A DNA stretch of 50,040 bases from a virus, in IMG/VR virus record IMGVR_UViG_3300028920_000096, positions 1-50,040 of that record. One strand, given 5' to 3'. The notes under the pieces are model-generated. The model saw only the letters and a list, made by a program, of their open reading frames with translations. It was not told the origin of the DNA and ran no database searches. Both the position numbers and the translations under genes were made by a program. Shown one piece after another: positions 2,706 to 16,733 of the stretch; within the stretch, counting starts at the first letter, position 1; the number at the start of each line of letters is the position of its first letter.

Positions 2706-2718
2706 AGGAGAAAACAAA

Positions 2719-3027
2719 ATGAGATTGCAGTGGATTAAAGTAGATGGTACCTTTGAAGTGGACAGGCGGGAGGAGCGAGCATCATTCGGCCCGTTTTTGT
2801 TTATAGTTCGTAGAATTTTTCCGGGCCGGACATATTCAGAAGTGGAATTGCAGATCAAAATTCATGTGCAGAAAACTAAGAGGACACTTGTCCCGATAAT
2901 GTTTTTTTCGCACCCGTTTGCCCGGAAGAATGTGGCAAAGGCGACGGCAGAAAGAATTTTGCAGGAGTTTTGTGTTAGTATGGAGAAAGCGGAGTGTGGA
3001 GAGAGCCGTAATGGAGCAGGAAAATGA
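2719..3027 (+). CDS. Hypothetical protein between helicase and ParB-like genes
   Basis: The 102-residue product is not recognised. It looks like a small beta-rich fold with a basic middle and no membrane segment or motif. It starts 13 bases after the helicase gene with the ribosome-binding site AAAGGAG and its stop overlaps the start of the ParB-like gene by four bases, so it belongs to the same operon. The bases and codons match its neighbours. Confidence 0.65.
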   Translation: MRLQWIKVDGTFEVDRREERASFGPFLFIVRRIFPGRTYSEVELQIKIHVQKTKRTLVPIMFFSHPFARKNVAKATAERILQEFCVSMEKAECGESRNGAGK

Positions 3028-3593
3028 AAATTAGAGACAGGGTTGTGGAAATTCGTAAGGTAAAAGCAAAAGAGCTTTTGGACAATCCAAAAAATTGGAG
3101 GAAGCATTCTAAGTACCAGAAGAGGGCTTTTCAAGGGCTTTTATCTGAAATTGGAAATGCCACAATTCCGCTGGTATACGAAACACCGGACGGGCTGATG
3201 CTTATTGATGGGCACTTGAGAAAAGAAATGCTGGGAAGTAAAACAATCCGGGTGGCCGTTCTGGATGTGACAGAGCAGGAGGCAGATAAATTGCTTGCCA
3301 CTATTGATCCTTTGACAGCGTTAGTGGATCAGGATTCGGAGGCTTTTCAGGAGCTTGTGGAACGGCTGGAATTTCAAGCGGGGGAGGTTCAGGCCTTAGT
3401 TGCGGGGGTATTGGAGAACTCTGAATTTATTTCATGGGAGGGCGAAGTAGACGCAGACCCACGTTTTGATCCTAATAAGAGAAAGGTTTCTAAATTGGTT
3501 ATAAAGTTTCCAAGAGCAAGGGAAAAGGATTTGGTTCCAAAGTTAAAGGAACTTATTGATTCATTAAATATAGAGGGTTTGTCCTATGGCTGA
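3024..3593 (+). CDS. ParB-like (ParB/Srx superfamily) domain protein, copy 1
   Basis: The 189-residue product has a ParB N-terminal-like domain in its first 110 residues. It shows the conserved start pattern (VKAKELLDNPKNWRKH at 13-28), the catalytic-type box IDGHLR at 61-66 and the closing helix EADKLLATIDPLTAL. A second copy of the same architecture lies at 6766-7422. In phages, such ParB-like domains often sit beside DNA-modifying enzymes, and some are nucleases or nucleotide-binding proteins. Here the gene overlaps the start of dpdA by eight bases, which suggests a role in base modification rather than plasmid partition (inference). There is no ParB helix-turn-helix domain; the last 70 residues are unassigned. 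Confidence 0.75.
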   Translation: MKIRDRVVEIRKVKAKELLDNPKNWRKHSKYQKRAFQGLLSEIGNATIPLVYETPDGLMLIDGHLRKEMLGSKTIRVAVLDVTEQEADKLLATIDPLTALVDQDSEAFQELVERLEFQAGEVQALVAGVLENSEFISWEGEVDADPRFDPNKRKVSKLVIKFPRAREKDLVPKLKELIDSLNIEGLSYG

Positions 3594-4467
3594 GAAAAGA
3601 TTCAAGCCGGGGATATTGATTTCATATGCGTATATTGAAAAGCAAAAGGGATTGTTTTCCAAGTTGTTGTCATATGATCCGAATAGTTATACCTTTTTTT
3701 TGGATTGCGGAGCATACTCAGCATGGAATTGTGGGATGAAAATAAATTTGAAAGATTTCGCTTTATTTGTCCGTGACATGCCAAAATTGCCGGGGATGAT
3801 TATAAGTCAGTTAGATGTTGTTTATAGTCCTGAAAAGACAAGGGACAATTTTTTTCGGTTGTTGGACATGGGATTGGATGTGAAGCCAGTCATAACAGCG
3901 GGGACAACAGAAGAAGAGATTTTAGAACTTGCCCCATATTCTGATTATTTTTTGGTGGGTGGTGTTTGGGCAATGGTCAATTCCTTGAGGGATACGGGTT
4001 ACTTGGGAAAAATAAAGCAATTGCTTCCCGGTAAGAAGATACATTGGTTTGGTTATACGAATTTGAAAGCAATTAAAACATATCGCCCCGCCAGTGTTGA
4101 TAGTTCTAGCATAGACGGGTGTTATCGTTTTGGCACAATAGAGTTTTTTTTGAATGCCCATAAAATAGGACTGACCAGAAAAAATGCACAGAACCCTATT
4201 GATTATCGGATTGTAAAGCATTTGTTGAAGATAGGGTTTACTGTGGACGAAATTAAGAAACTTAGTAAATGGGAATCATGGAGTTATAAGGATAAAGAAA
4301 GAACATTGTTGAGAATGAGTTGCGCGTCAAGATTACATGCTGGATATTTTATGCAGAAGAATTGTGGTACAATTTATTTTCAGTCAATACTTGTCCCAAA
4401 GGTTTTGCAGACAATTTTTGAAACGGTAGAGTTTTTGGAAGAACATTTTAATGAGAATGTTCTATAA
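3586..4467 (+). CDS. dpdA: DpdA-like DNA guanine transglycosylase (TGT superfamily)
   Basis: The 293-residue product resembles DpdA, the enzyme that exchanges guanine in DNA for a 7-deazaguanine base. Visible hallmarks are FLDCGAYSAW (Asp40), ISQLDVVYSPEKT (Asp77), the glycine-rich FLVGGVWAM near 122-130, and HWFGYTNLK followed by SVDSSS (Asp172). They are in the order expected of a TIM-barrel tRNA-guanine transglycosylase relative. It lacks the zinc site and C-terminal region of bacterial tRNA TGT, consistent with a DNA-acting form. It is directly followed by folE, queD and queE, which make its substrate, and preceded by a ParB-like gene. The assignment is strong from motifs plus context. 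Which of guanine's substitutes (preQ0, preQ1 or archaeosine-like) it inserts cannot be read from the sequence. Confidence 0.88.
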   Translation: MAEKRFKPGILISYAYIEKQKGLFSKLLSYDPNSYTFFLDCGAYSAWNCGMKINLKDFALFVRDMPKLPGMIISQLDVVYSPEKTRDNFFRLLDMGLDVKPVITAGTTEEEILELAPYSDYFLVGGVWAMVNSLRDTGYLGKIKQLLPGKKIHWFGYTNLKAIKTYRPASVDSSSIDGCYRFGTIEFFLNAHKIGLTRKNAQNPIDYRIVKHLLKIGFTVDEIKKLSKWESWSYKDKERTLLRMSCASRLHAGYFMQKNCGTIYFQSILVPKVLQTIFETVEFLEEHFNENVL

Positions 4468-4480
4468 AAGGAGAAGGATT

Positions 4481-5092
4481 ATGACCGGGTTTTTTGCGAA
4501 TGAAAATAAAACTTTGACAAAGGAAGAGATGGAGGAAATGCAGTCAGAATTGGAGGGGCTTTTTGCAAAAATGTTGGCTACAATGAAAATAGCTCCGGAT
4601 CATAATACAAGGGAAACTCCCGCACGAATGGCAAAAATGTATTTGGAAATTTGCCGGGGAAGATATGAGCCGGAACCAAAAGCAACGGTTTTTCCGAATA
4701 CTAATGAATTGAATGAAATTATGGTGATTGGGCCTATTGAAGTCAATTCGTTGTGTTCGCATCATTTTGTTCCAATACAGGGGGAAGTTTTTGTGGGGGT
4801 TATACCGGGGGACTTTTTGTTGGGGGCAAGTAAATTTCATCGTCTTGCAAAATGGGTTTTCGCAAGGCCACAGATTCAGGAAGAGGCAACGGTTCAATTG
4901 GCAAATATATTAGAGCAAAAATTGGGCAATGCAGAAGGATTGGCCTTGGTGGTCAGGGCAAAACATTTTTGCATGAACTGGAGAGGAGTGCAGGACAAAG
5001 ACACAGAAATGGTCACGTCAATTATGCGGGGTGTTTTCCATGACAAGCAAACGGCAAGGATGGAGTTTTTGGAACTCTTGAAAGGACACTAA
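4481..5092 (+). CDS. folE: GTP cyclohydrolase I
   Basis: FolE opens GTP to dihydroneopterin triphosphate, the first step of 7-deazaguanine synthesis. The chosen start at 4481 follows AAAGGAGAAGG and gives 203 residues; an upstream in-frame ATG at 4451 overlaps dpdA and has no ribosome-binding site. The zinc-site motif is SLCSHHFVP (Cys92, His95), and the second cysteine lies in KHFCMNWRG (Cys164). The family pattern GASKFHRLAKW is present at 115-125. The length fits the family. It lies 13 bases after dpdA and one base before queD. Confidence 0.96.
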   Translation: MTGFFANENKTLTKEEMEEMQSELEGLFAKMLATMKIAPDHNTRETPARMAKMYLEICRGRYEPEPKATVFPNTNELNEIMVIGPIEVNSLCSHHFVPIQGEVFVGVIPGDFLLGASKFHRLAKWVFARPQIQEEATVQLANILEQKLGNAEGLALVVRAKHFCMNWRGVQDKDTEMVTSIMRGVFHDKQTARMEFLELLKGH

Positions 5093-5093
5093 A

Positions 5094-5513
5094 ATGAACC
5101 ATATTTTAGAAGTAGTAAGATGGCATGACATTTCTTGTGGGCATCGTGTTTATGGGCATGAGTCAAAATGCCAGCATTTGCACGGTCATAATTACCGCAT
5201 ACATTTCACATGCAGGGCTGAATTGGATGATTTGGGAAGGGTCATTGATTTTGGCATCATAAAAGAAAAATTGTGCAAGTGGTTGGAAGAGAATTGGGAT
5301 CACAAGTTTTTGATATATCACAAAGACCCGCTGTCTGGTAAATTATTTGAACTTGACCCGGAAGGCATTTATTTTATGCCAAGCAACCCCACAGCAGAAA
5401 ATATGGCTATATTTTTGATGGAAGCCGGGGATAAAATTCTTGGCAATCCGAGTGTTCATTTGGTCAAAGTAAAGGTTGAGGAGACAGCAAAATGCGCGGC
5501 AGTATGTATGTGA
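5094..5513 (+). CDS. queD: 6-carboxytetrahydropterin synthase QueD
   Basis: QueD turns dihydroneopterin triphosphate into 6-carboxy-5,6,7,8-tetrahydropterin, the second step of the 7-deazaguanine pathway. The 139-residue product has zinc ligands His17 in DISCGHRV and His30/His32 in HLHGHNY, with the catalytic Cys26 four residues before His30. The acidic motif VKVEET near the C-terminus is the substrate-binding glutamate region of the T-fold family. The gene sits between folE and queE with overlapping or adjacent junctions, so the set is translated as an operon. Confidence 0.95.
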   Translation: MNHILEVVRWHDISCGHRVYGHESKCQHLHGHNYRIHFTCRAELDDLGRVIDFGIIKEKLCKWLEENWDHKFLIYHKDPLSGKLFELDPEGIYFMPSNPTAENMAIFLMEAGDKILGNPSVHLVKVKVEETAKCAAVCM

Positions 5514-6205
5514 GACAATATCCGATTAATGAAATTTTTTGCAGTTTTCAGGGGGAGGCAAGTTTCGCCGGAACTCCCGCTGTGTTTATTCGGACACAAG
5601 GTTGCCCCGTGGGATGTATTTTTTGTGACACGAAAGAAACATGGGATGAACAAGCAAAAAATGAAATAACAAGAGAAAAGTTATTAGAAAAAAAAGGAGA
5701 AAAGACCCCAGAATTTGCCCGGTTTACTTTGCTGGAATTGCAAACGGTAATTGCAGAAATTAGAGAAGGTGAAAAGCATGTCGTAATTACCGGGGGAGAG
5801 CCAGCGTTGTTTGATTGGACAGATTGGAAAAGTTTTCCATATAACAGAATTCAGATGGAGACAAGCGGAAGGTATCCGTTAAAAGTCCCATTAACTTGGT
5901 TTGTGACAGTTTCCCCGAAAATAGTGAACGGGGATTTATCTTTGATAAATACGGAAGCGTTGGAAAGGGCCAATGAAATTAAATGGCCCATATTAAATAA
6001 CGAAGATGTGAAAGTATTTGAAAAGGCAAGGGAGGAAGGTCTGCTTTACAGCTTCGGTGAAAGGGCGTCTTTTAATTTTCCAAAGGAAGTGTTTTTGCAT
6101 CCGATATTCGGTTCAAAGACTGCCTTGAAGTTGTCAATTAAACTGGCAAAGAAGTATGGGTATCGTATTTCTTTGCAAACGCATAAATTGGTTGGAGTGC
6201 GATAA
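5492..6205 (+). CDS. queE: 7-carboxy-7-deazaguanine synthase QueE (radical SAM)
   Basis: QueE converts 6-carboxytetrahydropterin to 7-carboxy-7-deazaguanine with a radical SAM cluster. The 237-residue product starts with the family motif around SFQGEASFAGTP, then carries the [4Fe-4S] cysteine motif CPVGCIFC (Cys38, Cys42, Cys45). The SAM-binding GGEPAL stretch follows near residue 100. The start at 5492 has GAGGAG nine bases upstream and overlaps queD by 22 bases. The product is the substrate for QueC, whose gene lies about 10 kb downstream in the head gene cluster. Confidence 0.95.
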   Translation: MRGSMYVRQYPINEIFCSFQGEASFAGTPAVFIRTQGCPVGCIFCDTKETWDEQAKNEITREKLLEKKGEKTPEFARFTLLELQTVIAEIREGEKHVVITGGEPALFDWTDWKSFPYNRIQMETSGRYPLKVPLTWFVTVSPKIVNGDLSLINTEALERANEIKWPILNNEDVKVFEKAREEGLLYSFGERASFNFPKEVFLHPIFGSKTALKLSIKLAKKYGYRISLQTHKLVGVR

Positions 6206-6211
6206 AATAAA

Positions 6212-6769
6212 ATGGAAAATAAAAAAGAAAATAAAAAAGAGGGCAGAAATGGTGCAGATTCCACGGATGTCATGAGCAATGCGGAAAAGAAAAAAAAGGG
6301 ATACTCGAAAAAGGTTACTCCGGCAAGGAGAGCCATAATTATGGAACGGAGGAAAAAGGTAGCGGCATTATATATGAGGCGGTTTACACAAGCTCAGGTC
6401 GCGGAACAATTAGGGGTAGGTCTGAGAGTTGTTGAACAAGATTTGGCATATATGAGAAAACTTTGGGCAAAAGAGGCCATGCAAAGTATGGGTACTCTGA
6501 TTGCAAGGGAATTGGCAGAAATACAGCATATCGAAAATGAAGCGGGAATGGGATATATCAGAACACAAGATATGAAGTATTTAGAACTGCGGTTAAAATG
6601 CAAGGATCGCAGGGCAAGGTTATTGGGGCTGGATGCTCCGGAGAAAATAAATCCGGAAACGGTCAAAAATATCCACGAAACGAATATAGAGGTTAATTTG
6701 CACAAGTTGTCAGAAAGCGAATTGAATTTGCTTGAGAAACTACTGGACGGAAAGGAAAATACAGAATGA
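6212..6769 (+). CDS. Helix-turn-helix protein, possible terminase small subunit
   Basis: The 185-residue product has a very basic N-terminal tail (about 1-50) and a helix-turn-helix of sigma-70 region 4 or terminase small-subunit type. The relevant segment, YMRRFTQAQVAEQLGVGLRVV, lies around residues 54-74. A long helical region rich in Arg, Lys and Glu follows. It could be the small terminase subunit, since no other candidate is seen before the large subunit at 12250. The distance of about 5.5 kb and the neighbouring ParB-like and glycosyltransferase genes make a regulatory or modification role also possible. No clear ribosome-binding site precedes 6212; an in-frame ATG at 6272 is an alternative start. 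The stop overlaps the next gene by four bases. Confidence 0.55.
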   Translation: MENKKENKKEGRNGADSTDVMSNAEKKKKGYSKKVTPARRAIIMERRKKVAALYMRRFTQAQVAEQLGVGLRVVEQDLAYMRKLWAKEAMQSMGTLIARELAEIQHIENEAGMGYIRTQDMKYLELRLKCKDRRARLLGLDAPEKINPETVKNIHETNIEVNLHKLSESELNLLEKLLDGKENTE

Positions 6770-7422
6770 AAAATTACAAAGACAGAATAATCGGGTTGGA
6801 ACGGGTGAAGGCTTCGCAATTAACTCCGCACGAAAAGAATTTTAGGCGGCACAATGATAAACAGAAACAGGCATTGGCCGGGGTTTTGAGAGAGGTGGGT
6901 TATGCCGACGCATTACTTGCTCGAAAGGACAAAAAAGGCAATCTGATTTTAATTGACGGACATTTGAGAGCAGAGATTTCCCCGGATCAGGAAGTCCCGG
7001 TCTTAGTTTTGGACGTGGATGAAAAAGAAGCAGATTATATTCTGGCGACTTTGGATAATTTGGCGGGACTGGCAGACACAGACGAAGGGGCTTTTGAGGA
7101 CCTTGTGATGGATTTAGAAGTCCAGAGCAAGGTGGTTAGGGAAATGCTGTTGGGTATTTTTGACGATACGGAAACAGTGGACGAAAAAACAATCCCCGTG
7201 GACAAGGGGGAATTGTTTGGGAAAGCCCTACAATTAAAGCCCCGCAGGGAATATGTTGTGGTGGTTTGTGAAAACGAGCAGGAGTGGAATTTATTAAAAG
7301 AATTCTTAGAATTGAAAGACACGCGCAAGGGGGGACAAAAGAAAAAGGCCCCATTTGAAACCATAGACACGGAACGGGTGGTCACAGCTTCTCGTTTATT
7401 CGCGGCATTGGAGGATGATTAA
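6766..7422 (+). CDS. ParB-like (ParB/Srx superfamily) domain protein, copy 2
   Basis: The 218-residue product repeats the layout of the protein at 3024-3593. It has the start VKASQLTPHEKNFRRH (14-29), the box LIDGHLR (62-68), then EADYILATLDNLAGLADTD, which parallels the first copy closely. The C-terminal third is unrelated to the first copy and ends in a Lys-rich stretch. It overlaps the HTH gene by four bases and abuts the glycosyltransferase gene with no gap, so these three are one translational unit. Partnership with base modification is inferred from gene order. Confidence 0.75.
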   Translation: MKNYKDRIIGLERVKASQLTPHEKNFRRHNDKQKQALAGVLREVGYADALLARKDKKGNLILIDGHLRAEISPDQEVPVLVLDVDEKEADYILATLDNLAGLADTDEGAFEDLVMDLEVQSKVVREMLLGIFDDTETVDEKTIPVDKGELFGKALQLKPRREYVVVVCENEQEWNLLKEFLELKDTRKGGQKKKAPFETIDTERVVTASRLFAALEDD

Positions 7423-8142
7423 ATGTTAGTGGCAATTTTAAGCTCAGGCAGGGTAGGGAAAACGACCACGGACAAATTATTGCCATTTGCCACAATGTTT
7501 GTTCCGGCAAAGGAGGTGGCAGAATACAAGGCCCATATTAAATGTGACAAGCTGGTGGAGGTACCGAATAAAATAAAGGGGGTGGCGGCAACCAAGAATT
7601 ATATTATTGAAAAAACACAAGAGGAGGAAATAGTATTCGCAGAGGACAACGTTAAAAGCTCCGGTTATATTGAGTTTTTGGATGATTTTACAAAAGCCCA
7701 TAAAATGACTGGGGCAGAATTATACATGGAGTTTGTTAAATTATTTCAAGTGGCACGGGGGATGAAATATAGGATGTGGAGCATTCCCGAATCCCGGTCT
7801 GCAAAGGACTGGATACCACAAAGACCCCTGCAATGGCATCCGAAATTAGCAGGGGGGATTGTGGGATTTTTGAGAGGCACTGGGGCAAGGTACGATGAAG
7901 GGTTTTTGCTTCATACGGAAACTGAATTTCTGCTTCGGGCTTTGGTTGAGGATGGTGGTGTGGTTGGGGCCAATTATCTTTATTGGGAGAATTTCCATTG
8001 GACGGATGCAGGGGGTGTTTCACAATACCGGACAAAAGAAAATGAATGGGATTGTGCCCAGCAGATGATGGTGAAGTATCCCGGTCTAGTCCATTGTTCC
8101 ATGGACGGGGGAATTAAATACAAGTTAACTTTGAAGACATAA
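7423..8142 (+). CDS. Glycosyltransferase-like protein resembling TET-associated glycosyltransferases
   Basis: The 239-residue product follows the pattern I associate with the phage TET-associated glycosyltransferase (TAGT) family. An N-terminal beta strand runs into SSGRVGKTTTDKLLP; FVPAKEVAEY follows at 26-35; GVAATKNYIIE at 53-63 and an acidic AEDN at 73-76 stand where a GT-A enzyme has its metal-binding DxD. The C-terminal half has TETEFLLRAL, then GGVSQYRTKE and KYPGLV, also as in that family. Such enzymes add sugars to modified bases in phage DNA. Here no TET oxygenase is seen, and the modified base nearby would be a 7-deazaguanine. The family call is from memory of motifs, not a search. 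The GKTTT string is not treated as a P-loop. Confidence 0.6.
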   Translation: MLVAILSSGRVGKTTTDKLLPFATMFVPAKEVAEYKAHIKCDKLVEVPNKIKGVAATKNYIIEKTQEEEIVFAEDNVKSSGYIEFLDDFTKAHKMTGAELYMEFVKLFQVARGMKYRMWSIPESRSAKDWIPQRPLQWHPKLAGGIVGFLRGTGARYDEGFLLHTETEFLLRALVEDGGVVGANYLYWENFHWTDAGGVSQYRTKENEWDCAQQMMVKYPGLVHCSMDGGIKYKLTLKT

Positions 8143-8156
8143 TTCAGGCAGAAAAG

Positions 8157-8166
8157 TCTATACTAT
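8157..8166 (+). promoter_or_regulatory. TCTATACTAT element, probable -10 region (copy 1)
   Basis: The ten bases TCTATACTAT occur here and at 37986, 43190 and 47061, each in a gap before a gene. This copy ends 19 bases before the ATG at 8186, with AAGGAGG between. TATACT is close to a sigma70 -10 box; the best -35-like bases are AAGACA, 19 bases upstream. It probably starts a transcript for the small-gene cluster. Confidence 0.5.
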
Positions 8167-8185
8167 ATCAAAGGAGGCTTTGGAA

Positions 8186-8500
8186 ATGGATGGTTTGAGT
8201 ATTACTTCAAGTGTTGGACATGGACAGGCAAGCCCCCCAAAAAATATGAAAGGAAAGTGGATTTTTGAAGTCAAGGGGACTGGGAACATAGTGGAGGTTA
8301 CTCCAAAGGTTTTGGATGACGGGAGCATTTTTTTTGAAACAAGGGAAACGTTTATTCGCACAAAATATGAGGATGGAAAATTCAAAGCAAATGGACGGGC
8401 CTGTTACAGTATAGGTCTTTTTGCTACGGGGGAGGAAGTTTTGGAGAATGCCATACGGGGGAGGGCCGGGGTATGGCGACCTATCATCCAGACAAAGTAA
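8186..8500 (+). CDS. Hypothetical protein, first of the small-gene cluster
   Basis: The 104-residue product is not recognised. The start at 8186 was chosen because AAGGAGG lies eight bases upstream; the earlier TTG at 8180 would be too close. The predicted protein is beta-rich with no membrane segment. It is the first gene after the promoter-like TCTATACTAT element and its 3' end overlaps the next gene by 28 bases. Confidence 0.65.
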   Translation: MDGLSITSSVGHGQASPPKNMKGKWIFEVKGTGNIVEVTPKVLDDGSIFFETRETFIRTKYEDGKFKANGRACYSIGLFATGEEVLENAIRGRAGVWRPIIQTK

Positions 8501-8694
8501 AATGGTTCGTGGTTCGGAATAAGCCGCATGTTTGGGTTCTGTGGTCAGGGCCGGGAACATATGCCCCCATTTATTCAGTGGCATTTGGCCGATTTGTTTG
8601 GTTCGCCCAAAAATGGGGGGAATTTGAAGAACGCATAGCAGAGGAATGGATTCGGGTAGACAACGTTCCGTTAGCTTCTGGAATTTTGAACTAA
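8473..8694 (+). CDS. Hypothetical Trp-rich small protein
   Basis: This 73-residue product has seven tryptophans and several aromatic clusters (WFVV, VWVLWSG, FVWFAQKW). It overlaps the previous gene in another frame, and a GGGAGGG sequence upstream can serve as ribosome-binding site. It is followed 12 bases later by another small gene. It is not recognised. Confidence 0.55.
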   Translation: MATYHPDKVKWFVVRNKPHVWVLWSGPGTYAPIYSVAFGRFVWFAQKWGEFEERIAEEWIRVDNVPLASGILN

Positions 8695-8706
8695 AGGAGG
8701 ACAGAC

Positions 8707-8889
8707 ATGGTCTTCGTGGTGGGAAAAATATATCGGCATAAAGTAAACGGAGCCAAATACAAAATAAAGGCAAAATTGAATCCAAAGGAATATACGGTGC
8801 TCAAGAAGGGGGCCGATGGATTGCGGGAGAGAAAGACACTTGGAAAAAAATACTTAGAAAGTTTATTCGGGAAAGAAAAGGGCAAGTAG
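8707..8889 (+). CDS. Hypothetical basic small protein
   Basis: The 60-residue product is strongly basic, with Lys-rich stretches and a short beta-like pattern (GKIYRHKVNGAKYKIKAKL). An excellent AAAGGAGG lies nine bases before the ATG. A nucleic-acid-binding role is possible from charge alone, but no family is recognised. Confidence 0.65.
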   Translation: MVFVVGKIYRHKVNGAKYKIKAKLNPKEYTVLKKGADGLRERKTLGKKYLESLFGKEKGK

Positions 8890-8890
8890 T

Positions 8891-9118
8891 ATGAAGTGGA
8901 AACAGATTAGGCCGGACTGGCATCAAGCCGTGGGTAAGGGTTTAATTTTTGCCTTAACTCAGGATGCGGGAAAACTGTGGAGATGGGATGCCATGGTAAA
9001 CCTGAACACAATGGGCAATTATTTTTTCAAAGTGGAGTCAGTCAGGGCCAGGCCCTTTGAAATGGCAAAGCAGGATGCGGAAAACTTTTTGAGATTATAT
9101 GTGGGGATTATCAAATGA
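8891..9118 (+). CDS. Hypothetical protein
   Basis: The 75-residue product is unrecognised. It begins at the base after the preceding stop plus one and ends in an ATGA overlap with the next gene, which supports it as a real member of the small-gene operon. Two Trp-Arg patterns and no membrane segment are seen. Confidence 0.55.
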   Translation: MKWKQIRPDWHQAVGKGLIFALTQDAGKLWRWDAMVNLNTMGNYFFKVESVRARPFEMAKQDAENFLRLYVGIIK

Positions 9119-9348
9119 AGTGGAAGAGAAAGCCTAATCAAAAGCATTGCTTTTATTTTGAAAATAGTGAAGTTTGTTTATTAGGGCATCGGGCACAATT
9201 GGACACGATTTGGTATGGGCATGTGTGGTTAAAGGAAAGTAACCATAGAGTATGTTTGCCCGTGAATTTTGAAAATAAGGAAGACTGTAAAAGGGGATTG
9301 GTCTCTTTTGCAAAATTTGTCTTGAAATGGAAAAAGGAGTTTGAGTAA
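9115..9348 (+). CDS. Hypothetical protein
   Basis: The 77-residue basic product has an N-terminal Lys/Arg-rich start, a Cys and several His residues, and ends with KFVLKWKKEFE. It is joined to both neighbours by overlaps (ATGA upstream, one-base overlap downstream), which supports translation. No family is recognised. Confidence 0.55.
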   Translation: MKWKRKPNQKHCFYFENSEVCLLGHRAQLDTIWYGHVWLKESNHRVCLPVNFENKEDCKRGLVSFAKFVLKWKKEFE

Positions 9349-9653
9349 TGGAAGAAAATAAATCAGACAAGATTGAGATGCGAGGGAAGGTGTCCCAAGA
9401 GCAGATCGTTGAAGCCTTGAAAAAGGAACCGCATGTCAGTATTCAGGACATGGCGGGAAACACGCATTTAATCCCCATTTCAGTTTTCTATAAAATAATT
9501 ACGGGGGAAATGAAAATTGAACAGTTGGATGATTGGGAGAAACTTCTGCCGAGGATCATTAAAGATTGGCTCTTTTTTCTGGAACAGGCTAACGCAACAA
9601 GGGTTGTGGGAAATTTGGAAGATAGAATAAGGGAAAAAAGAAAGGATAAATAA
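9348..9653 (+). CDS. Hypothetical protein
   Basis: The 101-residue product is acidic-basic mixed and mostly helical. A segment around residues 15-55 looks like a short helical bundle (VSQEQIVEALKKEPHVSIQD). AAAAAGGAG precedes the ATG. It is one base from the next gene. No family is recognised. Confidence 0.6.
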   Translation: MEENKSDKIEMRGKVSQEQIVEALKKEPHVSIQDMAGNTHLIPISVFYKIITGEMKIEQLDDWEKLLPRIIKDWLFFLEQANATRVVGNLEDRIREKRKDK

Positions 9654-9654
9654 A

Positions 9655-9999
9655 ATGAGGCTGAAAAATAAACCGAGGAGGGCGGGTTCTCGTTGGTTGG
9701 AAGGGGCACCGGAATATGTCCGGGATTGTTTTCACAACACGAAAAAATGGCACGGCACTTCTGAGGAATGGGAAGTTTGGCTTGGCACTGCTTACGATTC
9801 GGTTATTGACGGGGCAGTTGTGGAGGTACAGGGGATTGCCAGTAGCACGAACGGAACGCATCATTTCTTAATCATGATCCCCAGAGAGTTTGCGGCCCAT
9901 CGTTACAGGTCGAAAAATAGGAGGATTAAATGGAAGGATTTGCCAAAAGCGGTTTGTGACCTTGTTGAGCAAGTGGATTGGGAAGTTTCTAATTTATAG
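9655..9999 (+). CDS. Hypothetical protein
   Basis: The 114-residue product has a basic N-terminus, an alpha-beta middle with YDSVIDGAVVEVQGIAS and a His pair (GTHHFLIM), and a helical C-terminus. No catalytic motif or membrane segment is evident. It follows the previous gene by one base. Confidence 0.6.
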   Translation: MRLKNKPRRAGSRWLEGAPEYVRDCFHNTKKWHGTSEEWEVWLGTAYDSVIDGAVVEVQGIASSTNGTHHFLIMIPREFAAHRYRSKNRRIKWKDLPKAVCDLVEQVDWEVSNL

Positions 10000-10026
10000 T
10001 GGCAAGAAAAAGAAAGGACAAATAAA

Positions 10027-10230
10027 ATGCCAATTCGACAGTTGAGTGAAAACAGGTCCGATGTTATAAAACCATCGGAAGATAAATATGAGTTGGAGCA
10101 ATTCGATCAGGATTGCATTGAAGCGGCGGCACGTGTTTGGGTAGAGCAAGGAGGAACCAAGGGTTTATTTGGGTGTTTAGATAGTTTGGTCTATGAACGT
10201 ATTGGGGAATTGGAAAAGGAAGAGAAATGA
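10027..10230 (+). CDS. Hypothetical small acidic protein
   Basis: The 67-residue product is acidic and helical, without a recognised family. AAAGGAC upstream is a modest ribosome-binding site and the stop overlaps the start of the membrane-protein gene (ATGA), supporting coupled translation. Confidence 0.55.
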   Translation: MPIRQLSENRSDVIKPSEDKYELEQFDQDCIEAAARVWVEQGGTKGLFGCLDSLVYERIGELEKEEK

Positions 10231-10622
10231 CTACTTTCACGGTATTTGAAAACTATGAGGGGAAATTGAAAGCAGTCCCGAAGGGGGCCAGTATGGGGGG
10301 TGCGCTTTTCTCTGCAATATGGGCTGTCTCAGTGGGGCTATATGTTCCGGCAATTGCATGGCTGGCAGGGTATTTAATAGTCAATGCGTATGATTCATGG
10401 GCGGGGCCTGTGGTTGACACAGGGGACGGGTTCCCGATATATCATACGTTTTTCTATGGGATAGTTATGTGTGTGGTATTCGCGGCCTTTGGTAATCAGT
10501 GGCTCGAAAAAGAATTGCTCAGGAAGGGATATATTCGCCGGGGGACAATCAATACGAAGAGCAAGGGACAGGCTTGCGCCCTTTACAAGCAATGGAAAGA
10601 TTCGGTGAAAAAAAATGATTGA
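10227..10622 (+). CDS. Small membrane protein
   Basis: The 131-residue product has three likely hydrophobic helices: about residues 25-45 (ALFSAIWAVSVGLYVPAIAW), 46-56, and 72-90 (TFFYGIVMCVVFAAF). It then has a basic C-terminal tail of about 40 residues that would face the cytoplasm. It is coupled to both neighbours by overlaps. No homologous family is recognised. Its position among early-type small genes suggests host-membrane modulation rather than lysis (inference). Confidence 0.6.
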   Translation: MTTFTVFENYEGKLKAVPKGASMGGALFSAIWAVSVGLYVPAIAWLAGYLIVNAYDSWAGPVVDTGDGFPIYHTFFYGIVMCVVFAAFGNQWLEKELLRKGYIRRGTINTKSKGQACALYKQWKDSVKKND

Positions 10623-11241
10623 AAAAACTAAAGTAGCTCAGGTTTTCACAGAAATTTATAAGCACAATAAATGGGGAGGCGACGAAAGTGCTTCCGGGAA
10701 AGGTAGCGGCACATTGGCAACGGAAATTCTTAGAGCGAGGTTGCCTAAATTTCTCAAGAATTTAGGAATTCATTCAATGTTGGATGTACCTTGCGGGGAT
10801 TTCTTTTGGATGAATCAAATGTTAAAAGACCCCGACATGCAGGGCATAAGTTATGTAGGCGGGGATATTGTGGAGGAAATAATTGCCTCGAATCGTTCCA
10901 AGTATCAGCAGACTTTTGTACAGATGGATATTCTACAACACCTAATAAGAAGTGCTGATTTGATTTTTTGCAGGGATTGTCTGGTATATTTTTCTAATCA
11001 GGACATATTTAGGGCCATATTGAACTTTAGATTGTCAAGAAGCAAGTATCTTTTGACAACGAATTTCTTTAGACCAGAACAAGCCCCAAATATCCAGACT
11101 GGCAACGGGTGGAGGCCCCTGAATTTATGCCTGGAGCCTTTTAATTTCCCCGTACCATTAAAAGTAATTCCAGAGGGGAATAAAGAGAAGGGTTTTGAGG
11201 ACAAGGCAATGGCATTGTGGAAAATTGCGGACATATATTAG
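10615..11241 (+). CDS. Class I SAM-dependent methyltransferase
   Basis: The 208-residue product has methyltransferase motif I as LDVPCGDFFWM (56-66), a second acidic strand end in YVGGDIV, and the segment FCRDCLVYFS, followed by KYLLTTNFF and NLCLEPF. These together match a family of class I methyltransferases often found with glycosyltransferase and surface-polysaccharide genes. The family's N-terminal pattern (IYKHNKWGGDESASGKGS) is also present. The substrate is unknown: it could act on a sugar or on a modified base. It lies 13 bases before the QueF-like gene, so a role in base modification is worth testing. The gene overlaps the membrane-protein gene by eight bases. Confidence 0.8.
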   Translation: MIEKTKVAQVFTEIYKHNKWGGDESASGKGSGTLATEILRARLPKFLKNLGIHSMLDVPCGDFFWMNQMLKDPDMQGISYVGGDIVEEIIASNRSKYQQTFVQMDILQHLIRSADLIFCRDCLVYFSNQDIFRAILNFRLSRSKYLLTTNFFRPEQAPNIQTGNGWRPLNLCLEPFNFPVPLKVIPEGNKEKGFEDKAMALWKIADIY

Positions 11242-11254
11242 GAGGAAAATTAAA

Positions 11255-11599
11255 ATGGACAGAATACAGTTCCAGAGAAAAGCAAATCCTGAAACAGACA
11301 TTTTCATAAGTTATGGGAGAATAGCTCCATTTTATAATATATGCAAAGTGGCGAATATAAGGGAGGAATTTAATATAACAATGGAATACATTCCGGATAA
11401 ATACTTGTTGGAGGTGGGGACATATCGCAAGTATTTTCAGCAATTGTTTAATTTGTATATAGAAGAATTGGTGGAGGATGTTTTCAGTCATTTGTGGGAG
11501 TTATTGGAGCCGAAGTATTTGAAGGTGACAATTCATGTGGATGACAAAAATTTAACTTATTGGGACGTTACAATGCAGAAAACAAAGGAGAAAAATTAA
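11255..11599 (+). CDS. Divergent QueF-like T-fold protein, possibly amidinotransferase-type (QueF-L)
   Basis: The 114-residue product aligns by eye with QueF, the preQ0 reductase. NICKVANIREEFNITMEYIP (28-47) corresponds to the active-site block LCPxTGQPDF and following strand, so Cys30 matches the nucleophile, although one residue is inserted before the acidic Glu38. In QueF the next motif E-S-K-S-x-K binds NADPH; here it is EVGTYRKY (53-60), which lacks the lysine and serine pattern. The FHE motif is also altered. Loss of the NADPH motif with the cysteine kept is the known feature of crenarchaeal QueF-L, which amidinates preQ0 to archaeosine. Start chosen at 11255 because GGAGGAAAA lies upstream. 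Confidence 0.65.
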   Translation: MDRIQFQRKANPETDIFISYGRIAPFYNICKVANIREEFNITMEYIPDKYLLEVGTYRKYFQQLFNLYIEELVEDVFSHLWELLEPKYLKVTIHVDDKNLTYWDVTMQKTKEKN

Positions 11600-11600
11600 A

Positions 11601-11849
11601 ATGGATAACGTGGTTAATGCAGACAATGGAATTAAATTAGGTGGGGTACGGGAGGAAGGCTCTTTATTTATTTCACAAGAGGCAATGGATAATTGTGATT
11701 CAATGTGGGAGGCTGTAATTTATTCTATTCTTGAAAGTGGAGAAAATCCTATGGATTTGGTAAGGAGGGGACTTAGAATTTTGGAGCAAAAAGGGTTGAT
11801 TGAATTCACGTTCAACACGACAGGGGAATGGAAGGTGAAAAAGTCATGA
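11601..11849 (+). CDS. Hypothetical protein with possible winged-helix C-terminus
   Basis: The 82-residue product is not firmly recognised. Its last 35 residues (DLVRRGLRILEQKGLIE, then a short beta hairpin ending GEWKV) could be a small winged-helix element. It starts one base after the QueF-like gene and its stop overlaps the next start as ATGA. Confidence 0.5.
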   Translation: MDNVVNADNGIKLGGVREEGSLFISQEAMDNCDSMWEAVIYSILESGENPMDLVRRGLRILEQKGLIEFTFNTTGEWKVKKS

Positions 11850-12250
11850 AAGAAAAAATATGTAGCAGTTGTGCGGGTCGGGGGTTCGTATTTATTGGCA
11901 GTGAGGGGGACACAATAGATTGTGACCATTGTTCTGCCACGGGGAAGATTACTATCCAAAATGCAAAGGAATCAGCTGTAATGCAAGAGGTCACTTGTGC
12001 CATATCAGACTGGCACGACATTCCAGATTACTATAAAATTCAATTGACAGGAATCAATGAGCAGGGGGAGCGGGTACAAGTTTTGGTGGAATGTGATACA
12101 ATAGCTCACGCACTTGGTTTTCATCAAGATGCCTATATATATCAGGCATTCACGAATTTGTTTAGATTTGACCGGAAAGGAACGGCTTTGGATAATGTAA
12201 AGAAAGTGGCTCATTATTTGAAATGGTGGATAGCTCGGGAAGGTAAATAA
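11846..12250 (+). CDS. Protein with DnaJ-type CxxCxGxG zinc motifs
   Basis: The 134-residue product begins with CSSCAGRGF and, 20 residues later, CDHCSATG. These are two cysteine pairs of the kind found in the DnaJ zinc-binding domain, enough for one zinc ion. The rest has a WHD and a Tyr-rich alpha-beta region of unknown fold. The start at 11846 is preferred because it makes an ATGA overlap with the previous gene; 11828 is an in-frame alternative. There is no J domain. It lies one base before the terminase gene. Confidence 0.65.
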   Translation: MKEKICSSCAGRGFVFIGSEGDTIDCDHCSATGKITIQNAKESAVMQEVTCAISDWHDIPDYYKIQLTGINEQGERVQVLVECDTIAHALGFHQDAYIYQAFTNLFRFDRKGTALDNVKKVAHYLKWWIAREGK

Positions 12251-13713
12251 TGAAGGCTTTGGCAGTAAATCAGAATTTTAATTTTATAGAAAATGTTTCC
12301 TTGTCTGATATTCGGAGGGAGCAATGCAGGAGAAGTCTTCGTCGTTTTGCATATAAGGTAAAGACGGATTTCATGGAGGGGCTTCCACAAAAGAGACTGA
12401 TCCAAGTTTTGACAGACGTATACCATGGGAAATTGGATCGGGTTATCGTTTCCATGCCCCCCCGACATGGGAAAAGTTTAATGGTCTCGCAGATTTTTCC
12501 ATGTTGGGTTTTAGGCAATCGGCCAAAGACTCAAATAATTCAGACAGGGTATTCTCATGATATATCTTTAGAACAGTCCCGTCATGCACGGGATTTATTT
12601 GTGTCTGAGGAATGTAGAGAAGTTTTCCCGCATATTTATTATACGCCGCAACGGGCCAGTCAGAATAGAATTCCAGTGGAAAAACAGGCGGCACACGAAT
12701 GGGGCACTTTGCAAGGGGGCCGATATTATTCAGTGGGCGTTGGTGGTGGTTTGACGGGGCGTGGCGCAGACATTGGCATTATTGATGATCCTGTGAAAAA
12801 TAGAGAGGAAGCGGAGTCGGCCACTGTCCGGGAAAAAGTTTGGAATTGGTATTGCTCGACATTTTATACTAGGCTTTCGCCTACGGGTGCAGTTATTTTG
12901 GTGATGACCAGATGGCACCCTGATGATTTAGCGGGACGGCTTTTGAAGCAAATGGCAGAGGGGGAAGGGGAAAAATGGGAACTTGTGGAACTTCAAGCCG
13001 AGCAGGGAAATGGTAAAGAAGCGTTATGGCCTGAACGGTGGCCCCTGAATAAATTACATCAAATTAAGAAGGCAATTGGGCAGAGGGAATATACGGCACT
13101 TTACATGCAAAAGCCCACGTTACAGGGCGGGAACATTTTTCATATTCAAGGTGTGACAGAAATAGACATTAAAGATTTTCCAGACACAAGGTATGCCCGT
13201 ATGTGGGATTTGGCTTCCAGTGAAAAACAAAGAACGAAAGGTGATCCGGACTTTACAGTGGGGGCCTTGGGCACCGTAATTAAAAGGGATGATCTGGATC
13301 ATTTGTATATAAAAGATTTACAAATAATGCAAAAGGAAAAACCTGCACGGGATGCAATAATTAGGAAGACAGCGGAGCAGGACGGGGCAAGTGTGATTAT
13401 TGGTGTGGAGGCAAACGGTGGATATAAGGATGCGTATGTGGACATAAGACATGCCTTAGCTGGAAAAAGAATTGTTATGAAAGTAATTTCTAGCAGGGAT
13501 AAGGTTGTCAGGGCCTCGCCATTGGAACCATTATTTGAGCAGGGACATATTTTTGTGCCAAGAGGAGCTTGGTGGCTCCCCCGGTTTTATCAGGAGTTTG
13601 CGGACTTTCCCAGCACCGCACATGATGACGTGGTGGATGCGGTGACTACGGTATATCATTATTTCCTTAGAAATTCAGTGGGGGCAATTGACAGGGAAAG
13701 TCTAAGAATTTGA
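12250..13713 (+). CDS. terL: Terminase large subunit
   Basis: The 487-residue product is the DNA-packaging motor. The ATPase domain has Walker A PPRHGKS (70-76), a Walker B ending IGIIDD (175-180), and a coupling-type motif around VILVMTRWHPDD. The nuclease domain follows with MWDLASSEK (about 315), IIGVEANGG and a final HDDVVDA (about 465), giving the acidic RNase H-like site. It feeds DNA through the portal encoded directly downstream. Length and motif order are normal for the family. Confidence 0.96.
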   Translation: MKALAVNQNFNFIENVSLSDIRREQCRRSLRRFAYKVKTDFMEGLPQKRLIQVLTDVYHGKLDRVIVSMPPRHGKSLMVSQIFPCWVLGNRPKTQIIQTGYSHDISLEQSRHARDLFVSEECREVFPHIYYTPQRASQNRIPVEKQAAHEWGTLQGGRYYSVGVGGGLTGRGADIGIIDDPVKNREEAESATVREKVWNWYCSTFYTRLSPTGAVILVMTRWHPDDLAGRLLKQMAEGEGEKWELVELQAEQGNGKEALWPERWPLNKLHQIKKAIGQREYTALYMQKPTLQGGNIFHIQGVTEIDIKDFPDTRYARMWDLASSEKQRTKGDPDFTVGALGTVIKRDDLDHLYIKDLQIMQKEKPARDAIIRKTAEQDGASVIIGVEANGGYKDAYVDIRHALAGKRIVMKVISSRDKVVRASPLEPLFEQGHIFVPRGAWWLPRFYQEFADFPSTAHDDVVDAVTTVYHYFLRNSVGAIDRESLRI

Positions 13714-13768
13714 TTGTTTATTTTGCAAAATGCTAAGATACAGGCACCAAAAAAGAAAGGGTTTTACA

Positions 13769-15256
13769 ATGGATTTGCAAAGTTACTTGGGAATAGAAAT
13801 AAATACGGACGATGTGGAAGCCTTGTGGGATGGGGATGCAACGGCAAGGGCGTTCAGGGCCGAAAAGAAAAAGTATTATGATGGGAAACATAAAATACTA
13901 GAACGCAAAGAAAAATATGGGGACGGCACAGAAAAAAGCAATACGGTCATGAATTGGATTGACCATATTGTCTCTGAACATGCCGGGGCTATTTCGTCGT
14001 ATCAGGTATCGTCTGAATCCGAAGAGGAAAAACCCGCCACGGACGAATATAAGAAAGTGGCCGAGAATAATTTCTTAGACTCCAAAGATTTGAATAATCG
14101 AAGGAAGGCTATTTTATACGGATATGGTGTGGAAGTACATTCATTTGATCCCAAAGAGAAGAAAATAATAATTAAGAATTATGATTCAAATGAATGGTTG
14201 TTTTTGCGGGATTCAGACGATGTTTTAACTCTTGCAATTCGATGGGTTACGCTTCCGGACAACACAATTCATAATGGGAAATTACTCAAAGACCCTTTGG
14301 AGGTGGTTTCTGTTTATAGTCAGCAGGGGTTCGTCCACTTAGAAAGGTTGTCAGAAACGGAATGGGCTGTTTCAAGCAATGGCAGACATTCGTATGGCAG
14401 AATACCAGTTGTGCAATGGCGGGTGGACGAAGATTCGTTGGGAATTATAACCAAGGCGTTGATTTCCCAGAATGATGAATATAATGTAGTCGATTCTGCA
14501 AACGGGGACAGCGTGAAAATAGACGTGGACAGTGTTCTAAAATTGAAGGGTGTGGATTCGTCTTGGGCAAATGAAAATGAGACTACAATCCGGGAAAAAA
14601 GAATGCTCCCCCTGCCATTTGATTCAGATGCCGAATATATGTCCCGCACTTTTGATACGGTCAGAACCCAAGATCGTTTGGACAGGACACGAAAACATAT
14701 TCACATTATGGGCCGGATTCCGGATGTGGCAAATATAGTTGGAACCACTGGAGCCACGTCCGGAATTGCTTTGAAGCTAATGTTTTCTCCAATGCAACGG
14801 GAAGTGGAGAGCATGATTTCTTTTCTAAAGCAAGGTGTTGCTGACAGAATTGCTTTGATGAATGCCATCTGGGCTAAATTAGGCCAACCTGTTTTGACGG
14901 ATTTTACAACCACGATACAATTCTTGATGCCCGTAAATAGAATTGAAGAGTGGCAGAATATAAATGGGCTGGAAGGTGTGGTCAGCAAGAAAACAAAATT
15001 GGAACTTTTGACGGATATTATAGACCCCGAAAAAGAGTATGAAGCGTTAATGGAAGACGGGGCCGTGGGAATGGAGGCAGAGGAAATTCCGTCTGATGAA
15101 CAGGCCAAAAATACCGAAGCACGACAAAATGAGAATGATATTCGGGCCATTGATTTTGAGGGCATGGTTGGGGACATAGTTGAGAATTTAAGTATGGGGG
15201 TTATTGATTATTTGGTCAAAACAAAGGCCATTGAACGGCTTTCACCGGAAGGCTAA
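13769..15256 (+). CDS. Portal protein (SPP1 gp6-like)
   Basis: The 495-residue product (start chosen at 13769 after AAAGGG; the upstream ATG at 13730 lacks a ribosome-binding site) fits a phage portal of the SPP1/DUF1073-like type. It has the N-terminal region with WDGDATARAFRAEKKKYYDGKH, the NTVMNWIDHIVSEHAG helix, a central beta domain, the TSGIALKLMFSPMQREVES helix-rich stem region, and an acidic C-terminus. It lies between terminase and a MuF-like head protein, the standard order. The fold call rests on pattern plus position. Confidence 0.85.
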   Translation: MDLQSYLGIEINTDDVEALWDGDATARAFRAEKKKYYDGKHKILERKEKYGDGTEKSNTVMNWIDHIVSEHAGAISSYQVSSESEEEKPATDEYKKVAENNFLDSKDLNNRRKAILYGYGVEVHSFDPKEKKIIIKNYDSNEWLFLRDSDDVLTLAIRWVTLPDNTIHNGKLLKDPLEVVSVYSQQGFVHLERLSETEWAVSSNGRHSYGRIPVVQWRVDEDSLGIITKALISQNDEYNVVDSANGDSVKIDVDSVLKLKGVDSSWANENETTIREKRMLPLPFDSDAEYMSRTFDTVRTQDRLDRTRKHIHIMGRIPDVANIVGTTGATSGIALKLMFSPMQREVESMISFLKQGVADRIALMNAIWAKLGQPVLTDFTTTIQFLMPVNRIEEWQNINGLEGVVSKKTKLELLTDIIDPEKEYEALMEDGAVGMEAEEIPSDEQAKNTEARQNENDIRAIDFEGMVGDIVENLSMGVIDYLVKTKAIERLSPEG

Positions 15257-15259
15257 ATT

Positions 15260-16063
15260 ATGCTGAAGAAGAAAAATTTTTTGCGGTTAACCAAAACTGA
15301 AATAGCCGCGATATTGAAGGAATTGGGACTTGGCACACTTGGGCAGGATGAATTGTTCAAGACGTATATTTTACAAGTGGTTGAGCAACAGCAAATGATG
15401 GCAGAGCAGGTTTACAACGACATGCTCCGGGGATTGAAAATTGACATAACAGATGTGGACAGGAAGGCGGCAAGGGCACAAGTAGAGCGGGATGCAAGGA
15501 CACTGATTACGAATTTATTCAAGACTGAGATGCGTAAGGTGGCCGAAAGAATTTTAGAGGGGGTTGAAAAAGGAAAAGACCCCTTGACCATTGCCCGAAC
15601 TTTGGACATGATAAAAGGCTTGGATAATCCGAGGGCACACCGTTTGGAAACATACGCAAATTTAATAAATCAGTTGAATTTGACGGAAGAGGAGAAGGCC
15701 AAAAAAATAGAAAAGTATAGGGCACATTTATTGAAGCAACGGAAGGAAACCATAGCCAGAACAGAAATGGCCTTTGCGGATGGACAGGCTTCGCATATTG
15801 AGGCAAAGGAAGAAGGAAAAAAATGGAAGGCTTGGATGACTTCCAGAGATGACAGGGTTTCGGATATTTGTGCAGGAAATGAGGCCGATGGCTGGATCAG
15901 AATCGACAGGCCCTTTTCGTCCGGGCACGACACAATTCCGGGGCATCCGAATTGTAGATGTACTTTGGCATATCGGGGGATTACGCCGGGGGAAGAGGAA
16001 ATAAGCAGACAGGATCAGAGAATCCAACAAACGGCATTGGCAAGAAAGGAAGCAGGGAAATAA
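15260..16063 (+). CDS. MuF-like minor head / head morphogenesis protein
   Basis: The 267-residue product has a helical N-terminal half and a C-terminal MuF-type domain (about 165-250). The conserved segments ETIARTEMAFADGQ, WMTSRDDRVSDIC, DTIPGHPNCRCTL are seen in order. MuF proteins (SPP1 gp7 relatives) attach to the portal and are present in few copies in the head. The gene sits between portal and queC, one base from the latter. Confidence 0.9.
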   Translation: MLKKKNFLRLTKTEIAAILKELGLGTLGQDELFKTYILQVVEQQQMMAEQVYNDMLRGLKIDITDVDRKAARAQVERDARTLITNLFKTEMRKVAERILEGVEKGKDPLTIARTLDMIKGLDNPRAHRLETYANLINQLNLTEEEKAKKIEKYRAHLLKQRKETIARTEMAFADGQASHIEAKEEGKKWKAWMTSRDDRVSDICAGNEADGWIRIDRPFSSGHDTIPGHPNCRCTLAYRGITPGEEEISRQDQRIQQTALARKEAGK

Positions 16064-16064
16064 A

Positions 16065-16733
16065 ATGTTTATGAAAAAAGATTCAGTAGTGGTTTTGCTC
16101 AGTGGTGGAATGGATTCTGTGACGGCATTATATGATTCCGTCGAAAAGCATTCCGTGGGTTGTTGTATTAGTTTTGACTACGGCTCCAAGCATAATGAAC
16201 GCGAAATTCATTATGCAAAATACCACAGCAAAAGGCTACTGATCCCGCATGTCACAATTCCGTTGGCATTTATTGGACAGTTTTTCAAGTCTAATTTGCT
16301 AAAGTCAGGTGGGGAAATACCGGACGGGCATTATGAAGACAAAAGTATGCAAAAAACAGTGGTGCCATTTCGTAATGGGATCATGTTGTCCATTGCGGCG
16401 GGGTTTGCGGAAAGTGCAGGGGCAGGGGGAATTGTGATTGCGGCTCATGCCGGGGATCATGCAATATATCCGGATTGCAGGGAAGAATTTATGTTTGCCA
16501 TGGCCTCCGCAATTGCCACGGGGACATATGCGGGCATAGAAGTGATTCGACCATTTATAAACATTGGCAAGGAAGGCATTGCCCAGAGAGGGGCCGAATT
16601 GGGAGTTGATTATAGCAAAACGTGGTCATGTTACAAGGGAGGGGAATTACATTGTGGGACTTGTGGCACATGCGTGGAAAGAAAGGAGGCGTTTGAACTG
16701 GCAGGAATCAAAGACCCGACACAGTACATTTGA
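16065..16733 (+). CDS. queC: 7-cyano-7-deazaguanine synthase QueC
   Basis: QueC makes preQ0 from 7-carboxy-7-deazaguanine with ATP and ammonia. The 222-residue product has the P-loop SGGMDS (13-18), FRNGIMLSIAAGFAE, IAAHAGDHAIYPDCRE, and the zinc-binding tail with Cys189, Cys197, Cys200 and Cys203. No glutamine amidotransferase domain is fused, so it is ordinary QueC rather than the GAT-QueC of phage 9g type. The gene is away from the other que genes, between a head gene and the scaffold gene; its stop codon overlaps the -35 box of the promoter for the capsid genes. Confidence 0.95.
   Translation: MFMKKDSVVVLLSGGMDSVTALYDSVEKHSVGCCISFDYGSKHNEREIHYAKYHSKRLLIPHVTIPLAFIGQFFKSNLLKSGGEIPDGHYEDKSMQKTVVPFRNGIMLSIAAGFAESAGAGGIVIAAHAGDHAIYPDCREEFMFAMASAIATGTYAGIEVIRPFINIGKEGIAQRGAELGVDYSKTWSCYKGGELHCGTCGTCVERKEAFELAGIKDPTQYI

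What the first reader, a model, noticed from the sequence alone, without database searches (positions are those of the whole stretch)
3586..16733. Complete preQ0 pathway plus DpdA in one phage genome
folE, queD, queE and queC are all recognised with their catalytic residues, and dpdA is next to folE. Together they should make preQ0 from GTP and insert it (or a derivative) into DNA. Phages with this set are known to carry 7-deazaguanine bases in DNA, which resist restriction. The genes are split over two separate operons (3.6-6.2 kb and 16.1 kb).
Basis: partly seen in the sequence, partly recalled or inferred. Interest (0 to 1): 0.85.

Follow-up and report, generated by a model that had tools for sequence, protein, structure and literature searches.

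The report
Phage deazaguanine DNA pathway, ParB-partnered

Summary
folE, queD, queE, queC and a dpdA are at the stated positions, each supported by profile searches and intact active-site motifs. DpdA is divergent (at most about 33% identical to any relative), but profile, catalytic residues and predicted fold place it in the DNA/tRNA-guanine transglycosylase superfamily. (1) A sixth pathway gene, a 114-aa QueF-fold protein at 11255-11599, keeps the catalytic Cys and substrate Glu but lacks the NADPH motif. It resembles archaeosine synthase QueF-L, so the likely end product is dG+ rather than dPreQ0 (inferred). (2) A ParB-like gene overlaps the start of dpdA. In 59 other non-redundant dpdA loci a ParB-like gene is next to dpdA in 34, but next to folE only once and never next to queC, queD or queE. 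This parallels the bacterial DpdA-DpdB pair, although membership in DpdB is not shown by sequence. (3) A second ParB paralogue sits beside a TAGT-like glycosyltransferase. (4) The genes lie at three sites on one strand; a related contig lacks the dpdA block, queF-L and queC at the matching places. Verdict: new variant of a known kind.

The parts
3024..3593 (+). ParB1: ParB/Srx-like protein (DGHLR motif at 62-66), overlapping the dpdA start by 8 nt; proposed ATP/DNA-loading partner of DpdA
   Evidence: phrog_620 2.5e-5, phrog_498 4e-7; ParB-like gene next to dpdA in 34/59 test loci
3586..4467 (+). DpdA: DNA-guanine transglycosylase, 293 aa, D40/D77/H153/D172 intact
   Evidence: phrog_887 1e-24; conserved residues in A3/A12; PDB 7ui4; AF2 pLDDT 82.9, TGT/DpdA fold Z about 15
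4451..5092 (+). FolE, GTP cyclohydrolase I
   Evidence: PF01227 4e-43; motifs
5094..5513 (+). QueD, 6-carboxytetrahydropterin synthase
   Evidence: PF01242 6e-27, phrog_2389 3e-44
5492..6205 (+). QueE, radical-SAM 7-carboxy-7-deazaguanine synthase
   Evidence: TIGR04322 5.5e-50, phrog_2076 2e-34
11255..11599 (+). QueF-L-like T-fold protein, 114 aa, Cys30 and Glu70 kept, no ExKS NADPH motif; proposed amidinotransferase giving G+
   Evidence: PF14489 1e-4 (below its cut-off), phrog_5949 7e-6; PDB 5jyx E 0.0017; AF2 pLDDT 83, QueF/QueF-L fold Z 14-15
16065..16733 (+). QueC, preQ0 synthase (no GAT domain)
   Evidence: PF06508 2e-58, TIGR00364 9e-52
6766..7422 (+). ParB2: paralogue of ParB1 (36% identical), next to the glycosyltransferase; possibly a second modification module
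   Evidence: phrog_498 1e-12, phrog_620 1e-11; A4
7423..8142 (+). TAGT-like glycosyltransferase (possible second DNA modification; not part of the preQ0 pathway)
   Evidence: phrog_842 5e-11; PF20691 5e-5, below its cut-off
10615..11241 (+). SAM methyltransferase immediately upstream of the QueF-L-like gene; link to the pathway untested
   Evidence: phrog_3382 1e-41; PF13649 1e-4

Best explanation
A phage DNA-guanine-modification system. FolE, QueD, QueE and QueC turn GTP into preQ0. DpdA cuts guanine out of replicated phage DNA and inserts preQ0, probably with the help of the ParB-like protein encoded just upstream (analogous to bacterial DpdB, a ParB-like ATPase). The QueF-L-like protein then most likely attacks the nitrile with its Cys to form a thioimide, and ammonia gives the amidine, so that the end product is 2'-deoxyarchaeosine (dG+). 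The modified guanines shield the DNA from restriction nucleases. Shown here by sequence and predicted fold: identity of the six enzymes, intact motifs, recurrent ParB-DpdA pairing. Inferred: activity, ParB's role, the exact end product (dG+ about 0.5; dPreQ0 about 0.25; dPreQ1 or another derivative the rest), and protection.
For: Enzyme identities. DpdA: D40, D77, H153, D172 conserved; only PDB hit of the alignment profile is 7ui4; the phage DpdA HMM finds bacterial DpdA beside true dpdB at 2e-10 to 5e-10; fold Z 14.3-15.2 to TGT/DpdA. QueF-L: best PDB sequence hit is archaeosine synthase QueF-Like 5jyx; Cys30 and Glu70 invariant in 18 sequences; ExKS absent in the window and in L009, L131, L119 and L036, the latter four all within about 2 kb of dpdA, but present in Dp-1 and HVTV-1, whose DNA was measured to carry dPreQ1. 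ParB: next to dpdA in 34/59 loci gathered with a DpdA query; next to folE in 1/51, queC 0/47, queD 0/46, queE 0/42. Literature: 7-deazaguanine phages resist restriction and dpdA is essential for the modification in CAjan (PMC6884629).
Against: No biochemistry. DpdA sits on a long branch with no secure place among known subfamilies. The QueF-L-like protein has Glu instead of the usual Asp at Cys+7 and is below Pfam's gathering score. In the model comparison QueF and QueF-L tie (Z 14.9 v 14.4). Phages once annotated QueF-L (Dp-1, HVTV-1) turned out to make dPreQ1, so the class is easily misjudged. ParB1 does not match the DpdB model, and profile-profile comparison with DpdB gives only 14% probability. 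9g-type DpdA works without a ParB gene nearby. queF-L lies about 7 kb and queC about 12 kb from dpdA.
Confidence: 0.72

Rival explanations
1. The end product is dPreQ0; the QueF-L-like protein is inactive or has another role.
For: Four preQ0 genes plus DpdA and no GAT-QueC: CAjan and Rosebush with that set carry dPreQ0 at about 30% of G. The QueF-L-like gene is 7 kb from dpdA and its Asp is replaced by Glu.
Against: Cys30, Glu70 and the fold are kept; four other loci hold an ExKS-less homologue near dpdA, so it looks like a maintained pathway member.
Confidence: 0.25
2. The QueF-like protein is a nitrile reductase, so that the DNA carries dPreQ1 (possibly methylated by the SAM methyltransferase encoded just upstream).
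For: QueF is the closest fold along with QueF-L. Phage QueF homologues tested so far gave dPreQ1. A methyltransferase gene directly precedes it.
Against: The ExKS and RGG motifs that Dp-1 and HVTV-1 carry are both absent here. The methyltransferase has a generic profile match and no tested link to the pathway.
Confidence: 0.13
3. The genes serve tRNA queuosine (host translation boost) and not DNA.
For: folE, queD, queE and queC are the tRNA-Q pathway too, and Hutinet et al. propose this for phages that lack dpdA.
Against: A DpdA is present, overlaps folE, and its profile hits the DNA enzyme and not TGT; no queA, queG or queH match was seen among the proteins scanned.
Confidence: 0.06

Closest known systems
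Phage 7-deazaguanine DNA modification, preQ0 group (E. coli phage CAjan, Mycobacterium phage Rosebush; PMC6884629)
   Same: FolE, QueD, QueE, stand-alone QueC and DpdA together
   Different: Here a QueF-L-like gene is added, dpdA is highly diverged, and the genes lie at three sites
Mycobacteriophage Bipper and subcluster-B gene order (ParB, dpdA, queD, queE, folE, 'RNaseE', terminase; CRB2, PMC6392294)
   Same: A ParB-like gene just upstream of dpdA (Bipper gene 1 matches the ParB HMM at 1.6e-65), followed by the que genes and an 'RNaseE'-annotated gene (the window's 6212-6769 matches phrog_645 'Rnase E')
   Different: Bipper lacks queC; the window has queC inside the head operon and a second ParB with a glycosyltransferase
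Archaeosine synthase QueF-L (PDB 5jyx/5k0p)
   Same: About 110 aa, T-fold, Cys nucleophile, no ExKS motif
   Different: Glu replaces Asp at Cys+7; 17-18% identity; substrate would be in DNA, not tRNA
Bacterial Dpd system (DpdA + ParB-like ATPase DpdB; NF041060)
   Same: A TGT-like insertase encoded beside a ParB/Srx-superfamily protein
   Different: No sequence-level match to DpdB; the phage makes its own preQ0 and shows no further dpd genes among those scanned
Phage 9g type (Gat-QueC, DpdA)
   Same: Same enzymes up to preQ0, and a step beyond it
   Different: 9g uses Gat-QueC and has folE, not ParB, next to dpdA

Membership tests
DpdA (DNA-guanine transglycosylase) | Sequence relation to DpdA rather than TGT | tested here: met
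   phrog_887 1e-24, profile hits only 7ui4 in the PDB, 0/14 control genomes, phage HMM finds bacterial DpdA next to dpdB
DpdA (DNA-guanine transglycosylase) | Catalytic Asp pair and conserved residues in a TIM barrel | tested here: met
   D40, D77, H153, D172 conserved; AF2 model aligned with TGT/DpdA at Z 14.3-15.2, 3.4-3.8 A over about 240 residues
DpdA (DNA-guanine transglycosylase) | Base exchange in DNA | not testable with these tools
   needs LC-MS
Known DpdA subfamily | Placement inside a described subfamily | tested here: inconclusive
   Long branch, no supported set holds it
preQ0 pathway (FolE, QueD, QueE, QueC) | All four enzymes with catalytic motifs | tested here: met
QueF / QueF-L family | T-fold with catalytic Cys and substrate Glu | tested here: met
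QueF nitrile reductase | ExKS NADPH-binding motif | tested here: not met
   absent; present in Dp-1 and HVTV-1
QueF-L archaeosine synthase | Acid (Asp) seven residues after the Cys | tested here: inconclusive
   Glu37 in its place
QueF-L archaeosine synthase | Amidino transfer to preQ0 in a nucleic acid | not testable with these tools
   needs an assay
DpdB | Match to NF041060 | tested here: not met
   no match in the window; hhalign probability 14%, aligned on DGHLR/DGQQR
DpdB | Encoded beside dpdA | tested here: met
   overlaps dpdA by 8 nt; recurrent in other phages

The most novel reading that the evidence does not exclude
ParB-like proteins are general partners that load base-modifying enzymes onto phage DNA: one per enzyme (ParB1-DpdA, ParB2-glycosyltransferase here), with bacterial DpdB as one branch of the same logic. 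This phage would then carry two ParB-driven modifications, a 7-deazaguanine and a glycosylated base.
Probability: 0.25. Interest if true: 0.68.

Novelty: new variant of a known kind. Interest (0 to 1): 0.45.

Why it matters
The base chemistry is known, but the ParB-DpdA pairing turns a remark made for one mycobacteriophage into a quantified and testable rule: in a large part of phage DpdA diversity the insertase has a ParB-like neighbour that the other four pathway genes do not have. If the partner is needed, it may explain why DpdA alone is sometimes a weak insertase and would give a way to program 7-deazaguanine into DNA. The short QueF-L-like family would be a rare candidate for archaeosine synthesis in phage DNA without Gat-QueC or ArcS.

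Tried and rejected
Megablast of 3.0-17.5 kb against 50,697 phage records: no match, so the phage has no close isolate. Searches of viral contigs with the DpdA or FolE sequence alone found nothing; QueC and a DpdA alignment did. A mixed DpdA alignment was too diverse to search with. Host: TerL in genome contigs gave only three distant hits, 26-40%, so the host stays unknown. TGT proper rejected as the identity of DpdA. Plain Foldseek with the DpdA model ranked unrelated TIM barrels first at TM about 0.4 and was uninformative; the second alignment was clear. A first QueF HMM drew in FolE, so QueF work was redone on a hand-picked set. Grouping of the window DpdA with bacterial DpdA in the tree (81/80) was set aside as a join of long branches. 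DpdB membership of ParB1 rejected at sequence level. Promoter and terminator scans were uninformative. Terminal repeats: none found, so completeness is open.
Full report
Setting. The window is the whole of one 50,040-base uncultured virus record, 43% G+C, without terminal repeats. It is a tailed phage: DnaB helicase, PolA, terminase large subunit, portal, MuF, scaffold, major capsid by profile, with clamp-loader, RecA-like and SbcC/SbcD-like ORFs read by eye. The genes discussed are all on the + strand. No isolate is close: megablast of 3.0-17.5 kb against 50,697 phage records gave nothing.

Observation. Profile matches are strong for FolE, QueD, QueE and QueC, and the catalytic motifs are intact. 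DpdA has no Pfam or NCBIfam match but hits phrog_887 (phage 'queuine tRNA-ribosyltransferase') at 1e-24, and known phage DpdAs at 24-32% identity by tblastn.

Is it DpdA? Alignment with 17 other phage DpdAs leaves D40 and D77 invariant, with H153 and D172 nearly so; in a second set of 24 sequences all four are invariant. A profile from that family finds a single PDB chain, DNA-guanine transglycosylase 7ui4, and none of the many TGT entries. A phage DpdA HMM finds bacterial DpdA (2e-10, 5e-10) directly beside genuine dpdB genes that were fetched independently with NF041060. The AlphaFold2 model (pLDDT 82.9) aligns best with TGT and DpdA structures, Z 14.3-15.2 in all of the top 50 rows, including 7ui4 at Z 14.6. 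It is a long branch with no secure subfamily.

A sixth enzyme. ORF 11255-11599 matches QueF (PF14489 1e-4, below the gathering score; phrog_5949 7e-6). Its best solved relative by sequence is archaeosine synthase QueF-Like (5jyx, E 0.0017). Cys30 and Glu70 are invariant among 18 homologues. The AF2 model (pLDDT 83) aligns with QueF (Z 14.9) and QueF-L (Z 14.4). The NADPH motif ExKS is missing (its role is from established knowledge of QueF). That motif is present in Dp-1 (ESKS) and HVTV-1 (ELKS), both measured to carry dPreQ1 (PMC6884629), while the window, L009, L131, L119 and L036 lack it, and in those four loci the gene lies within about 2 kb of dpdA. Isolate phages gave no convincing match to the window's protein and none to the L009 or L131 proteins. 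I therefore prefer dG+ as the end product, with about even confidence. The Asp usually found at Cys+7 is Glu here, and the phage QueF-family proteins tested so far made dPreQ1, so this step is open.

A ParB-like partner. ParB1 (3024-3593) overlaps dpdA. Among 35 proteins scanned (the genes upstream of dpdA in this and other loci, plus ParB2), 30 matched ParB-like phrog_620. An HMM built from those was then applied to loci collected with a DpdA query. Among 59 non-redundant loci a ParB-like ORF was next upstream of dpdA in 28 and next downstream in 6, against 1/51 for folE and 0/47, 0/46 and 0/42 for queC, queD and queE. The loci are related and some contigs occur in both sets, so this is not a formal probability; on a tree of 92 DpdAs the trait needs 12 changes against 27 for shuffled labels, and a supported clade of 16 that holds phage 9g lacks it. 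A dpdB homologue was suggested for mycobacteriophage CRB2 (PMC6392294), and bacterial DpdB is described as a ParB-like ATPase that drives insertion (PMC12839542). By sequence ParB1 is not DpdB: no NF041060 match and a profile-profile probability of 14%, aligned on DGHLR/DGQQR. So it works like DpdB by analogy at best.

Second module. ParB2 (6766-7422, 36% identical to ParB1) abuts a TAGT-like glycosyltransferase (7423-8142). The same ParB-x-glycosyltransferase order occurs in Microbacterium phage Jefe. Whether it acts on DNA, and on which base, is unknown.

Arrangement. Genes from 97 to 8142 are nearly continuous, with overlaps or short gaps; queF-L is at 11.3 kb; queC is wedged between MuF and scaffold with a 1-nt gap to MuF. 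A relative, L092 (TerL 68%, capsid 70% identical), has no queC between MuF and scaffold, no dpdA block between its o2719 and small-terminase-like homologues, and no queF-L stretch before TerL. That record is only 13.4 kb, so the genes could lie elsewhere in that phage's genome; phrog_887 finds none in the record. This fits gain or loss of the pathway at several sites, but does not prove common timing.

Conclusion. Ordinary in kind, with a real addition: a ParB-partnered, diverged DpdA system that probably goes beyond preQ0. Experimental confirmation of every catalytic step is lacking.

Noticed in passing
window 6766-8142; L094:4080-5696: A second ParB-like gene abuts a TAGT-like glycosyltransferase; the same pairing occurs in Microbacterium phage Jefe (genes 83-85), and 33 Microbacterium phages have a matching glycosyltransferase.
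   Followed up: partly
window 18563-20763; L092:8762-10899: Two glycosyltransferase-like genes (MptE/sialyltransferase-like and a second GT) directly follow the capsid gene and are kept at 46-47% identity in the relative L092; perhaps capsid glycosylation.
   Followed up: no
window 10615-11241: SAM methyltransferase (phrog_3382) directly before the QueF-L-like gene, not seen in L092; possible role in modifying the base, untested.
   Followed up: no
L009:7010-8187: Two ParB-like genes in tandem just upstream of dpdA, followed by a QueF-L-like gene, queC, queD, queE and folE.
   Followed up: no
L177 / L189 (genome handle G111): A bacterial genome with two dpdB-type genes around one bacterial dpdA.
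   Followed up: no
L092:4990-6702: The MuF gene of the relative is extended to 570 aa, where the window instead has queC.
   Followed up: partly
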